A stretch of 26,614 nt of DNA from an uncultured Actinomycetes bacterium (GTDB taxonomy: Bacteria > Actinomycetota > Thermoleophilia > Solirubrobacterales > 70-9), in the NCBI GenBank assembly GCA_946482365.1, contig CAMLQY010000025.1:1-26614 (forward strand), read 5' to 3'. How positions within the stretch are numbered: position 1 is the first letter of the stretch; each line of letters starts with the position of its first letter. The notes under the pieces were generated by a model. The model ran no database searches. It had not been told where the DNA came from and worked only from the letters and a program-made list of their open reading frames with translations. Below are positions 10,311 through 13,191 of this stretch, piece by piece. The translations under genes and the position numbers were made by a program.

Positions 10311-11702
10311 ATGAAGGGCCTGGCTGAGCGGAATGGCGGGCGAGCGGGGCTCGCCGTTCTGACGACGATCCTCCTGCTCGGCCTGGGCCTGCGGCTCGCC
10401 GAGGCCTGGGACGGCCGCGCCCCCGTCTACGACGCCGCCGCCTATGCCGAGATAGCCCGGAGCCTCGACTACGGCAACGGCTTCACCCTGGGCCCAGAGG
10501 CCACCCAGCCCGCAAGCAACTACTCCCCTGGCCTTCCCCTCTTCGCAGCAGGCACCTACAAGCTGACGGGAAACGTCAACGAACGCACGGTGCGGGTCGT
10601 GCTGGCCCTACTGGGGACGCTCGCGGTGCTCTTCACCTACCTGATAGGCCGCCGCCTCTCGGGACCGACAGCGGGTCTGATCGGCGCAAGCGCAATTGCC
10701 ATCTACCCCGCCCTCCTCGAGTACCAGGGCATGCTCATGGGTGAGCCGCTCGCGGCGACGCTGCTCTCCGGCGCCGTCCTGGCCACGCTCTGGACAGCAG
10801 ACGTCGACCAGGGCCGCCACTCGCGCGGGTGGCGTGGGGTGAGGGGGGTCGAGGACGGACCGTGGCCCGCCCGCAGTGCCCCCCTCACCCCACGACAGGA
10901 CCCGCGCGCCAGGTGGCTGGTGCCGGGGCTGTTGTTCGGGGCTCTCATCCTGGTCCGGCCGGAGTACCTCGGGATCGTCTTGCTCGTGAGCTTGGTGGTG
11001 CTGGCGAGGGGTTGGCGAGATGGCTGGCGCCAGTCGCTGGTTGTGGCGGGGGTCTTCTTGGCCGGGGTCGTAATCGTGGTTGCGCCCTGGACCGGGCGGA
11101 ACGCGGTTGCACTTGACCGGTTCGTGCCGGTGTCGACGGGAGGCGGGCAAGTTCTCTTCGCCGGCACCTACCTGCCCTCCGATGGCGATCCGGAAAAGGT
11201 CGGGGCTGAGGTCGTGGAGCGCCATCCGGAGCTGTTCGGTCCCCGGGCGGTCGAACGACTGAGGCTGGAGCAGATCCTGGCTCGGCTGGCCGAGAGCCGC
11301 TATCCGCGGATGGAGACCGACGAGGCGCTGGGGCGGATGGGGCGCGAGCAGCTCTGGGACGACGTCTCCGAGGAGCCGGTCGAGTACGCGGGGTTCGTCG
11401 CGACCAAGGTTGGGCGGATCTGGGCGCATGGGCCGCGGGACGTGATGCGTGAGCCGGGCTGGGAGCTGTTTCACTGGGCACTCGCGGCCTTCGGGCTAGC
11501 CGGCTTGATCGTGCTGGCTGCACAGCGGCGCTGGGAGGCGCTGCTGCTGGCGACGATCTTCGTTGGGATCACCTTGGTCTGCGCATTGCTGGTCGCCTCC
11601 CCTCGGCGCGTGCTGGTGACGATGCCGCTCGTCGCGGCGCTGGCTGGCGTCGGTGTCACGTGGGTCGCCGACCGTGCGAGTGGTCGATTGACCCACGCAT
11701 AG
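10311..11702 (+). CDS. GT39/ArnT-like membrane glycosyltransferase, paralogue 1, with in-frame hairpin-repeat insertion
   Basis: 463-aa multi-spanning membrane protein with the layout of polyprenyl-phosphate-dependent (GT-C, PMT_2-like) transferases. An Asp-containing first outer loop follows the first helix ([14 protein letters not shown]), then [10 protein letters not shown], a TM stretch with [12 protein letters not shown], a MGEP motif, and RPEYL. Sugar donor and acceptor are not readable. The open frame extends far upstream, but family start and TAGCAT support ATG 10311. Residues 171-200 are encoded by a 91-bp repeat (copy B) in a loop just before [10 protein letters not shown] and look like pure insertion: Arg/Pro/Gly-rich and unlike GT39. 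The C-terminal part is alignable with the next gene ([17 protein letters not shown] versus PISTGGGKALYVGTFLP), showing tandem duplication. Confidence 0.85.
10821..10911 (-). repeat. Hairpin repeat copy B, inside the first GT39 gene, inverted relative to A and C
   Basis: Reverse-complement orientation of copy A, same 91-nt length. The inner arms CGTGGGGTGAGGGGGG and CCCCCCTCACCCCACG are perfect complements. The loop equals copies A and C. It encodes [30 protein letters not shown] in the host frame with no stop. Confidence 0.95.
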
Positions 11703-11739
11703 GGTGGTAAATCGTTCACTCGCTGCCTGGCTCGGTGGA

Positions 11740-11745
11740 TAGCCT
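11740..11745 (+). promoter_or_regulatory. Putative -10 element for the second GT39 gene (leaderless)
   Basis: TAGCCT ends 6 nt before ATG 11752, in a 49-nt gap after the first paralogue. No Shine-Dalgarno sequence is visible. Confidence 0.4.
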
Positions 11746-11751
11746 GCCTCG

Positions 11752-13191
11752 ATGGACTCGCTGAAGGTATGGGCGCGCGGGCTCCCCAAGCGCCATGGGC
11801 GCACGACGCTGATCGTGCTCGTGGCGATCCTGGTGCTCGGCTTCGGCCTGCGCGCCTACCGTGTGGTGGAGCCGCTGCCGACGCCCGGCGACGACGCGCG
11901 TGCCTACTACGCGCTCTCCAAGGCCCTGTACGAGGAACAGAGCTTCGGGGGCCCGACGTTCGAGGACTCCAGCGACTGGTCCCCTGGGGCGCCTCTCTTG
12001 TATGCAGTCAGCTTCTATGCAACTGCCGGGGCGCGTGAAGGCACTGCTCGCATAGTCGAGCTCCTCCTCGGCCTAGGCGCAATCGTCATCGTCTACCTGC
12101 TCGGGCGACGGATCAACTGCCGGCCCGCCGGCCTGGTCGGCGCCTTCGGGGTCGCCGTCTACCCCCCCTTCATCCATTCCACGGGCGCGCTCTTCAGCGA
12201 GCCGCCGGCGATCTTCCTCTTGCCGGCGGCGGTACTGGCATTTCTCTGGGCTTCGGACCCGGCCCCGCTGGCCCGCGGGTCCTGTCGTGGGGGGAGGGGG
12301 GCACTGCGGGCGGGCCACGGTCCGTCCTCGACCCCCCTCCCCCCACGCCACCCGCGAGTGAGATGGCTGTTGCCCGGAGTCCTGTTCGGGTGCCTGGCCC
12401 TGGTGCGGCCGGAGTACCTGATCGTGGGCGTAGCTTTCGTTGCACTGACGCTGATCCAGATCGGGAGGGAACGCGGCTGGAAACCCGGGCTCGCCGGTGC
12501 TGCTCTCCTCGGAGCGGGGCTGCTGCTGCCGATCCTGCCCTGGGCCGTGCGTAACCAGGTCGTCCTCGACCGCACGGTGCCGATCTCGACCGGCGGGGGG
12601 AAGGCGCTGTACGTGGGGACGTTCCTGCCCGCCGACGGGGAATACCAGAGGGTGAAGGCGATCCTCGCCAAGCGCTACCTGGGCAAGGAGCTGGACCCGC
12701 ACTCCAAGGCTCTCGAGGACGTGAACCCGACGCCGCTCTTCGACCGGGTCGCCGAGCGCTATCCCGAGCTGCCGAGGGACGAGGCGCTGGGGAAGATCGG
12801 CAGGCAGAACCTCTCCCACTACCTAGGCGAGGACCCGGTCGGCTACGCCGCGATGACCGCGCGCAAGACCTGGCGGATGTGGAGCGCCGGCGTCGGCGAA
12901 GCGATGAGCAGCACCGCCGGGCGAGTGGCACAGGTGCTGATCGTCCTGCTTGGGCTCGCCGGGCTTGGCGCGCTCGCGGCGAGGCGGCGCTGGTGGGAGC
13001 TGGCGGCGATGGCGACCCCGATCGTCCTCGTCACCGCGGTCGGCGCCGCCTCGCTCGCCGCGCCGCGCCGCAACGAGGTGCTGATGACGCTGATCTTTCC
13101 GCTTGCGGGGGTCGCCCTCTCGCGGGCGAACGCGGCCCTATTGTCTAGCCGCAAATGGTCTTCCAAGCAGGCATCTTCCCCGCCGAGCTGA
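11752..13191 (+). CDS. GT39/ArnT-like membrane glycosyltransferase, paralogue 2, with in-frame hairpin-repeat insertion
   Basis: 479-aa tandem paralogue of the preceding gene with the same multi-helix plan: a first-loop acidic pair in PTPGDDARAYYALSKAL, WSPGAPLLYA, LLGRRINCRPAGLVG, a FSEPPAI motif, RPEYLIV, and the large soluble-looking segment PISTGGGKALYVGTFLPADGE. Residues 173-202 are encoded by repeat copy C, at the equivalent spot to paralogue 1 (directly before VRWLLPGVLFG), but with the element in the opposite direction and therefore a different peptide. The 3' end overlaps the next gene by 37 nt. Substrate unknown; the adjacent GT2 enzyme could supply a polyprenyl-phosphate-linked sugar, as in other GT-C systems. 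Confidence 0.85.
   Translation: MDSLKVWARGLPKRHGRTTLIVLVAILVLGFGLRAYRVVEPLPTPGDDARAYYALSKALYEEQSFGGPTFEDSSDWSPGAPLLYAVSFYATAGAREGTARIVELLLGLGAIVIVYLLGRRINCRPAGLVGAFGVAVYPPFIHSTGALFSEPPAIFLLPAAVLAFLWASDPAPLARGSCRGGRGALRAGHGPSSTPLPPRHPRVRWLLPGVLFGCLALVRPEYLIVGVAFVALTLIQIGRERGWKPGLAGAALLGAGLLLPILPWAVRNQVVLDRTVPISTGGGKALYVGTFLPADGEYQRVKAILAKRYLGKELDPHSKALEDVNPTPLFDRVAERYPELPRDEALGKIGRQNLSHYLGEDPVGYAAMTARKTWRMWSAGVGEAMSSTAGRVAQVLIVLLGLAGLGALAARRRWWELAAMATPIVLVTAVGAASLAAPRRNEVLMTLIFPLAGVALSRANAALLSSRKWSSKQASSPPS
12269..12358 (+). repeat. Hairpin repeat copy C, inside the second GT39 gene
   Basis: Same orientation as copy A. The inner arms CGTGGGGGGAGGGGGG and CCCCCCTCCCCCCACG are perfect complements, and the loop is identical to A and B. 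The right outer end is slightly eroded (CCCGCGAG instead of CCCGCGCGA). In frame it encodes [30 protein letters not shown]. Confidence 0.95.
13139..13144 (+). promoter_or_regulatory. Possible internal -10 element for the DUF2304-GT2 gene
   Basis: TATTGT lies 10 nt before ATG 13155, inside the 3' end of the second GT39 gene. The spacing is longer than at clear leaderless starts. Confidence 0.25.

What the first reader, a model, noticed from the sequence alone, without database searches (positions are those of the whole stretch)
10821..12358. The same hairpin repeat sits in frame at the same position of two tandem GT39 paralogues, but in opposite orientations
Seen directly: residues 171-200 of the gene at 10311 and 173-202 of the gene at 11752 are encoded by the ~91-bp element. 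In both it lies immediately before the conserved RWL(V/L)PG(L/V)LFG, yet it is read from opposite strands and so gives two unrelated Arg/Pro/Gly-rich peptides. Either two independent insertions hit the same loop, or one copy inverted after duplication. The element has no stop in either frame used, so it adds a 30-residue segment instead of killing the gene. This resembles the Rickettsia palindromic elements, which are known to insert in frame, but the sequence family here is different and I do not recognise it as described.
Basis: partly seen in the sequence, partly recalled or inferred. Interest (0 to 1): 0.85.

Follow-up and report, generated by a model that had tools for sequence, protein, structure and literature searches.

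The report
Hairpin mobile DNA inside bacterial proteins
A roughly 100-letter hairpin of apparently mobile DNA sits, in either direction, inside many genes of a group of soil bacteria, where it seems to be read in frame as an extra floppy stretch of protein instead of breaking the gene.

Summary
Two tandem GT39-like genes carry the same ~93-bp hairpin (~105 bp with weaker ends), in opposite orientations, before RWL(V/L)PG; a third copy is intergenic. All three share an identical 30-nt loop.

It is not peculiar to this pair. Among the best-listed homologues (queries included), 72 of 121 and 79 of 120 carry an insert at that site, nearly all readable as this element, in both orientations and up to five frames. 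A 28-residue core of each window peptide occurs letter for letter in the other paralogue family too. The opposite orientations fit separate acquisitions after gene duplication better than one inherited copy.

A covariance model matches 12 of 61 genomes near G002 and 1 of 100 across the phylum (G002 itself). Of 126 copies in hand, 61 lie in candidate reading frames, including DnaX, an Lhr-type helicase, RecG, NuoC and lipoyl E2 linkers. Ends and loop are conserved; the stem varies with compensating changes.

Best reading: a non-autonomous, REP/RPE-like mobile hairpin family of Solirubrobacterales, translated where tolerated. The mobiliser is unknown: no Y1 transposase in five genomes, no TnpB-type domain in eleven. 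New variant of a known kind.

The parts
10818..10910 (+). element copy 1 (orientation A), core of 93 bp, in frame A1 of the first GT39-like gene, encoding [31 protein letters not shown]
12270..12362 (-). element copy 2 (orientation B relative to the gene), core of 93 bp, in frame B1 of the second GT39-like gene, encoding [31 protein letters not shown]
192..284 (-). element copy 3, apparently between genes (not in a candidate ORF)
10849..10878 (-). 30-nt loop of copy 1, identical in all three copies
12302..12331 (+). 30-nt loop of copy 2
224..253 (+). 30-nt loop of copy 3
10311..11702 (+). first GT39/PMT_2-like membrane glycosyltransferase, 463 aa (P0001)
11752..13191 (+). second GT39-like membrane glycosyltransferase, 479 aa (P0002), 42% identical to the first
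8973..9070 (.). related structure: two right-end motifs (GCGGGTCCTGTCG and its complement) facing each other around an unrelated interior; not among the matches of the element model

Best explanation
The insert is a copy of a family of short, non-autonomous mobile hairpins (mostly ~85-110 bp) of the Solirubrobacterales lineage. Shown: copies are dispersed and multi-copy. Ends and loop are conserved while the stem varies with compensating changes. Elements are present or absent at orthologous positions. About half of the copies in hand lie in candidate reading frames, many of recognisable genes. Inferred: the folded single strand, recognised at its asymmetric base (GGGTGGCG against CGACAGGACCC), is what a trans-acting enzyme moves. 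Insertions that fall in frame in loops, linkers or tails survive selection, because the GC-rich element is stop-poor in some frames. At a few tolerant sites (two GT39 loops, NuoC, DnaX, Lhr) successive insertion, loss by deletion across the hairpin base, and replacement or inversion of the resident copy give the mix of subfamilies and, at most of these sites, of orientations. The opposite orientations in the window are one draw from that process.
For: Three window copies with identical loop. 72 of 121 and 79 of 120 rows with an insert at the same site, both orientations in both families. On trees built without the insert columns the fewest changes are 21 and 27 for presence and 12 and 12 for orientation. 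Identical 28-residue peptides in both families: 4+6 and 3+4 proteins. Model matches in 12 of 61 genomes, G002 included. 61 of 126 copies in candidate ORFs, 58 distinct ORFs; of the 50 scanned, 40 have a Pfam family at E<=0.001, and in 21 the element lies between two matched stretches (my reading of the coordinates). NuoC: 13-residue loop in G004, G024, G043; element in G001, G002, G003. Stem (24 copies): 94.4% of cells paired, 50 double-change cells against 13.3 in shuffles; no slide above 61% paired. Possible remnants by pattern: 5 rows with SRARW and 9 with other pieces among 90 rows without a full insert. AlphaFold2: residues 173-197 below pLDDT 50 between helices 150-167 and 201-218.
Against: No mobiliser found: Y1_Tnp 0 of 5 genomes, PF07282 0 of 11, IS110 in 3 of 11 only, integron integrase over cut-off in 0 of 11. 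Six of 96 right-end motifs lay outside known copies and I saw none of them framing a gene (a strict motif, only loci in hand). No target motif or duplication seen. Homologue lists are the best 120 only and favour proteins like the query. Insert states were assigned by regular expressions. Trees are weakly resolved: the starred branches alone force only 9 changes of 'none' in the P0002 family (43 of 117 inner branches open). The number of pairs with a double change does not set the structure apart from a slide by +1 (10 each). The genomes named are MAGs (the four centre loci). Only 23 of 126 copies are in frame by the strict test; 4 more keep the phase but have a stop and 5 have flanks in another phase. 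Translation of the insert is not shown. Strand preference of folding is modest (lower energy in 94 of 126 with RNA and 116 of 126 with DNA parameters; more G-U pairs on A in 72, on B in 33, tie 21).
Confidence: 0.82

Rival explanations
1. One ancestral copy was present before the GT39 gene duplication and one of the two later inverted in place.
For: Same position in both paralogues; A1 and B1 readings share the codon phase at both arms, so an inversion between the arms would keep the frame (my reading).
Against: Element copies 92% alike against 42% host protein identity; homologues without a full insert are common in both families and both orientations occur in both; identical 28-residue peptides are shared across families.
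Confidence: 0.07
2. The segment is an ordinary low-complexity linker encoded by GC-rich DNA; the repeat resemblance is convergence.
For: The insert is Arg/Pro/Gly-rich and predicted disordered.
Against: Identical 30-nt loops in a gene pair and an intergenic copy; model matches across genomes; compensating stem changes.
Confidence: 0.01
3. The hairpin is a functional structured RNA or regulatory element (terminator, attenuator, bypass element) and not a selfish insert; its covariation reflects RNA function.
For: Conserved loop and base with covarying stem; more copies with extra G-U pairs on one strand (72 against 33).
Against: Both orientations at the same position of the same gene family and in ORFs generally (26 same, 35 opposite); no Rfam match at gathering score in the window and none reaching it in six element loci; the inserts keep the frame, so bypass or splicing is not needed.
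Confidence: 0.06
4. Stem covariation is produced by mutation (template switching that perfects quasi-palindromes), not by selection on a folded substrate.
For: Such correction of palindromes is known (recalled, no call); stems differ by paired changes even between window copies (sequences).
Against: The base asymmetry GG / ACAGG stays imperfect in most copies (108 of 126 with GGGTGG and 101 with CAGGNCC at the expected place), which a perfecting process should erase unless selected.
Confidence: 0.2
5. Assembly artefact of repeats in metagenomes.
For: The window has no held genome and many homologues come from metagenome sources.
Against: Inserts at this site in 151 of 241 listed proteins from several sources; element copies in 12 genome sequences and in-frame NuoC copies in three.
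Confidence: 0.02

Closest known systems
Rickettsia palindromic elements (RPE)
   Same: Palindromic repeats (~150 bp in the review) found in frame inside unrelated protein genes, with an ORF through the element; nearly half of those in R. conorii lie in genomic ORFs (PMC10969869, passages).
   Different: Other phylum; both orientations and several frames used; variable stem with conserved ends; the same protein site filled by different subfamilies. RPE sequences themselves were not fetched or compared here.
REP sequences, GTAG and CGTC families (PMC3733652, passages)
   Same: Palindromic, dispersed, some intragenic, many of those in replication and repair genes; CGTC families lack a dedicated transposase.
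   Different: Stems of 5-13 bp and loops of 2-20 there, against 23 consensus pairs and 34 in the folded window copy; GTAG near an end in 1 of 126 copies and CGTC in 27 of 126; no Y1 transposase in the five genomes tested.
MITEs
   Same: Short, no gene of their own, inverted-repeat ends, dispersed copies.
   Different: No target-site duplication and no parent transposon with the same ends found.
[quoted passage not shown]
   Same: Palindromic DNA that encodes protein segments and appears to move.
   Different: Those are tandem 25-residue repeats forming an amphipathic structure; here single segments predicted disordered.
Integron attC sites (recalled)
   Same: Recombination substrate recognised as an imperfect folded single strand with variable stem.
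   Different: No integron integrase over its cut-off in 11 genomes; the attC core was not searched for; only a working analogy.

Membership tests
Rickettsia palindromic elements | in-frame insertion inside unrelated protein genes | tested here: met
   61 of 126 copies in candidate ORFs; Pfam family in 40 of 50 ORFs scanned of 58
Rickettsia palindromic elements | sequence of one of the described RPE families | not tested
   RPE sequences were not fetched; the named genomes with the element are Solirubrobacterales MAGs
REP (GTAG type) | GTAG tag at one end | tested here: not met
   GTAG or its complement within 20 nt of an end of the matched span in 1 of 126 copies
REP (GTAG type) | RAYT / Y1 transposase in the genome | tested here: inconclusive
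   0 of 5 genomes (control rings in 5 of 14), but the named ones are MAGs
REP (CGTC type) | CGTC tag with 8-9 bp stem and 4-5 nt loop | tested here: not met
   CGTC near an end in 27 of 126; stem far longer
MITE | terminal inverted repeats on a short multi-copy element without a gene | tested here: met
MITE | target-site duplication | tested here: inconclusive
   no conserved flank beyond the ends; no exact empty allele of the same strain available
MITE | parent autonomous transposon with matching ends | tested here: inconclusive
attC / integron cassette | IntI integrase | tested here: not met
   0 of 11 over the cut-off; weaker matches in 11 of 11, as in 14 of 14 controls

The most novel reading that the evidence does not exclude
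Solirubrobacterales proteins carry fixed 'slots' (GT39 loops, NuoC loop, DnaX and E2 linkers, Lhr) that have long been occupied by hairpin cassettes with common ends. The cassettes are swapped between slots and inverted in place by recombination at those ends, so that one protein position samples several unrelated 30-residue peptides from the same DNA family while the frame is kept.
Probability: 0.33. Interest if true: 0.87.

Novelty: new variant of a known kind. Interest (0 to 1): 0.74.

Why it matters
In-frame palindromic elements are known best from Rickettsia. This shows an abundant, apparently independent family in an actinobacterial order, entering core genes (DnaX, RecG, NuoC, ribosomal protein tails, lipoyl E2) in both orientations. 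It offers a natural series of homologues with, without and with possible remnants of the insert, so how mobile DNA becomes protein sequence can be tested directly. It also points to an unknown enzyme that moves long folded hairpins.

Tried and rejected
Searches that gave nothing: plasmids and phages with the element (no match); Rfam at gathering score in the window (0) and by E-value in six loci (nine matches, each below its gathering score: seven to microRNA families, one antisense RNA outside the element, one IRES); viral contigs with the second subfamily's loop (0) and with the right-end motif (11 contigs; the model finds two weak matches there, E 0.03 and 0.23). Transposase families at E<=0.001: PF01797 0 of 5, PF07282 0 of 11, PF01548 3 of 11, TIGR02249 over cut-off 0 of 11. 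Literature: eight searches, four aimed at this group and four at intragenic palindromes or Rickettsia elements. No listed title or abstract opening describes such an element in Solirubrobacterales or Thermoleophilia; the papers listed hold neither name at all. This covers only the open-licence PMC library. Four papers were opened: three as passages, one as abstract and outline.

Rejected: chance or low-complexity convergence; one inherited copy inverted after duplication as the main story; an RNA-only role.

Weak points kept: the first classifications gave double labels and were replaced; two 'other' rows were left out of its all-state count. The alignment behind the covariation count used 24 of 29 copies found by then: four with other interiors (L039, L050, L052, L064) and one without the left anchor were left out. 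In one search one NuoC row (P0271) is labelled A by a faulty pattern though its peptide is B; the NuoC tree has 3 of 117 starred branches, so its 40 content changes against 5 presence changes is an indication only, and the list (best 120 of 7620) is biased to inserts because the query has one. In one search, 11 of 38 NuoC loci gave no loop match and one locus (L203) repeats L166. One search used a wrong pattern and found nothing; one search replaced it. One search was an empty script.
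Full report
OBSERVATION. The window holds three copies of one hairpin element. The 30-nt loop is identical in all three, at 224-253 (+), 10849-10878 (-) and 12302-12331 (+), with a mean of 0.00 in 100 shuffles. The copy in the first GT39-like gene (10311-11702) and the copy in the second (11752-13191) are 92% complementary over 100 nt, so they are read from opposite strands, in frame, without a stop. 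All three fold better than each of 200 shuffles. Between copies 1 and 2 the stem differs by a paired change: GTGAG / CTCAC in one is GGGAG / CTCCC in the other (sequences).

ORTHOLOGUES. The two proteins are 42% identical. Homologue searches listed the best 120 of 3283 for the second and the best 120 of 2968 for the first, that query included. Where a listed source names an organism it is a Solirubrobacterales bacterium. All were aligned together (241 rows) and classified by insert with patterns. The P0002 family (121 rows, query included): none 49, A1 31, B1 25, A2 7, B2 6, B3 1, other 2. The P0001 family (120 rows, query included): none 41, B1 60, B1 mixed 3, A1 15, A2 1. A and B are the two strands of the element and 1-3 the codon phase at its arm. 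So both families hold both orientations. A 28-residue core of the copy 1 peptide occurs letter for letter in 4 proteins of its own family and 6 of the other; that of copy 2 in 3 of the P0001 family and 4 of its own (counts include the window proteins). On trees made without the insert columns the fewest changes are 35 (states), 21 (presence) and 12 (orientation) for the P0002 family and 39, 27 and 12 for the other; the 2 'other' rows were left out of the state count. Support is weak: 43 of 117 inner branches of the first tree are open, and its starred branches alone force 9 changes of 'none', 7 of A1 and 10 of B1.

LOSS. Of the 49 rows without a full insert in the P0002 family, 5 hold SRARW, the product expected if the A1 insert is deleted between the CGCGC repeats of its base (inference), and 6 more keep pieces that look like the element; in the other family 3 of 41 do (by pattern). 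The closest listed homologue of P0002 other than its near-copy P0003 is P0004, 94% identical in the alignment, and has no insert.

ANATOMY. Of 29 copies found by then, 24 were aligned; four with other interiors and one without the left anchor were left out. A covariance model was built from them. Consensus, in orientation A: weak outer arm, CTC-N-CGCGGGTGGCG, variable stem, GAG(G/A)ACGG, spacer, CCCGCCCGCAG, complementary stem, CGACAGGACCCGCG-N-GCC. For a named structure of 23 pairs, 94.4% of 552 cells pair, 50 cells changed on both sides against 13.3 in shuffles, and no slid version exceeds 60.7% paired. The structure came from the same sequences, so the slide control favours it, and the number of pairs with a double change is no higher than at slide +1 (10 each). 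Conservation falls to background about 12 nt left of GGGTGG and about 14 nt beyond ACCCG on the right (108 and 101 of 126 copies had the anchors), so no target motif is visible. Other interiors share the same base: GAGGAAGCTTTAGCTACCG, and one with the two loop motifs in swapped order (CCCGCAGCTTGCGAGG); by pattern 39 and 15 of 126 copies, 36 like the window, 36 other.

DISTRIBUTION. Element DNA: matches in 4 of 4 genomes behind the nearest loci and in 7 of 41 genomes, G002 and 40 relatives, two of the seven with a short piece only. The model: 12 of 61 genomes, G002 included, one of them by a single weak match (strict filters and at most 70 candidates per genome scored, so copy numbers are lower bounds: 33 in G002, 22 in G003, 13 in G004, 11 in G001 and in G050). 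Of 100 genomes drawn across the phylum only the centre genome itself matched.

GENES. Of 126 non-redundant copies in hand, codon usage of the flanks puts 23 in frame, 4 in phase but with a stop, 5 on one strand in different phases, 6 between opposing genes, 70 with one coding flank, 17 with none and 1 at an edge. By a looser test 61 lie in a candidate ORF, 58 distinct ORFs. The looser test uses stop-to-stop frames that may begin upstream of the true start, as probably in L038 and L100, and probably picks the wrong strand in L075, where the other strand reads like GrpE (my reading). Fifty of the 58 ORFs were scanned: 40 have a Pfam family, 10 none. By my reading of the coordinates the element lies between two matched stretches in 21: Lhr-type helicase (5 genomes), DnaX (6), lipoyl E2 (4 ORFs), RecG (2), NuoC (2; the table prints only one of the two stretches), a PyrK-PyrD fusion and a GT4 enzyme. 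In ribosomal proteins L10, S5, S1 and L19, NusA and RibD it lies in the C-terminal tail. Frames used among the 61: B2 27, A2 14, A1 8, B1 2, B3 2, A3 1, 7 not placed; stops occur in 13 of 103 copies in frame B2 and 21 of 113 in A2, but in 35 and 49 of 113 (A1, A3) and 48 and 38 of 103 (B1, B3). Orientation to the gene: 26 same, 35 opposite.

SAME SLOT, DIFFERENT CONTENT. NuoC gives a second case. It was found in 56 of 61 genomes; among the loci read, the loop is 13 residues in G004, G024 and G043 and holds an element in G001, G002 and G003, the last of another subfamily, all three in orientation B; 11 of 38 loci gave no loop match. Among 120 listed NuoC homologues the slot holds both orientations and several subfamilies, with 5 shortened ones; that list is biased to inserts and its tree is poor. 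At the DnaX slot six genomes carry elements of different subfamilies and frames but all in one orientation; only a second copy in L050 is the other way round. At one Lhr position (before EIARAHH) G003 and G004 have one orientation and G002 and G050 the other. One GT39 protein (P0161) reads like B ends with an A loop (my reading), as a loop inversion between the stem arms would give.

STRUCTURE. AlphaFold2 on P0002 with 58 rows: mean pLDDT 79.5, pTM 0.82; residues 173-197 below 50, between helices 150-167 and 201-218. The insert is predicted as a disordered loop between two confident helices.

MECHANISM. Dispersal, presence or absence at orthologous sites and shared peptides are shown. That a trans-acting enzyme recognises the folded A strand at its asymmetric base is inferred; the A strand folds with lower energy in 94 of 126 copies (RNA parameters) and 116 of 126 (DNA parameters). 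No mobiliser was found.

KNOWN KINDS. A MITE review (PMC10969869, passages) and a REP survey (PMC3733652, passages) describe in-frame palindromes in Rickettsia and REPs inside replication and repair genes of several species. A REP tool paper (PMC12306157, passages) defines REPs as short and seldom overlapping coding regions; the passage seen lists three actinobacterial genomes, none of this order (placement recalled). The kind of event is therefore known; the family, the host group, the two-way reading and the recurrent slots are what I did not find described.

Noticed in passing
window 8973-9070: Two right-end motifs of the element face each other around an unrelated interior of about 57 bp; not detected by the element model.
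   Followed up: partly
L149 (G050:C40 region), ORF 596-3097 on the minus strand: An in-frame element copy sits at the junction of a single ORF that matches the iron-sulphur domain of dihydroorotate dehydrogenase B and then dihydroorotate dehydrogenase, as if the insertion fused two neighbouring genes.
   Followed up: no
L197, L198, L199, L200 (NuoC loci of G053, G042, G049, G045): The same NuoC loop holds long inserts (60-103 residues) with long predicted stems (no shuffle control); these four genomes had no element-model match, so the slot may be open to other palindromes too.
   Followed up: no
L073, L085, L087, L093 against the window copies: One subfamily carries the two loop motifs GAGGACG and CCCGCAG in swapped order, like a circular permutation of the loop.
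   Followed up: no
L064:1421-1534: A copy with the usual base and stem but a longer interior that appears to contain its own nested hairpin.
   Followed up: no
L097:1501-1640: The right end of a copy appears duplicated in tandem.
   Followed up: no
viral contigs L155-L165: Eleven IMG/VR contigs hold the 18-nt right-end motif without a good match to the whole element.
   Followed up: partly
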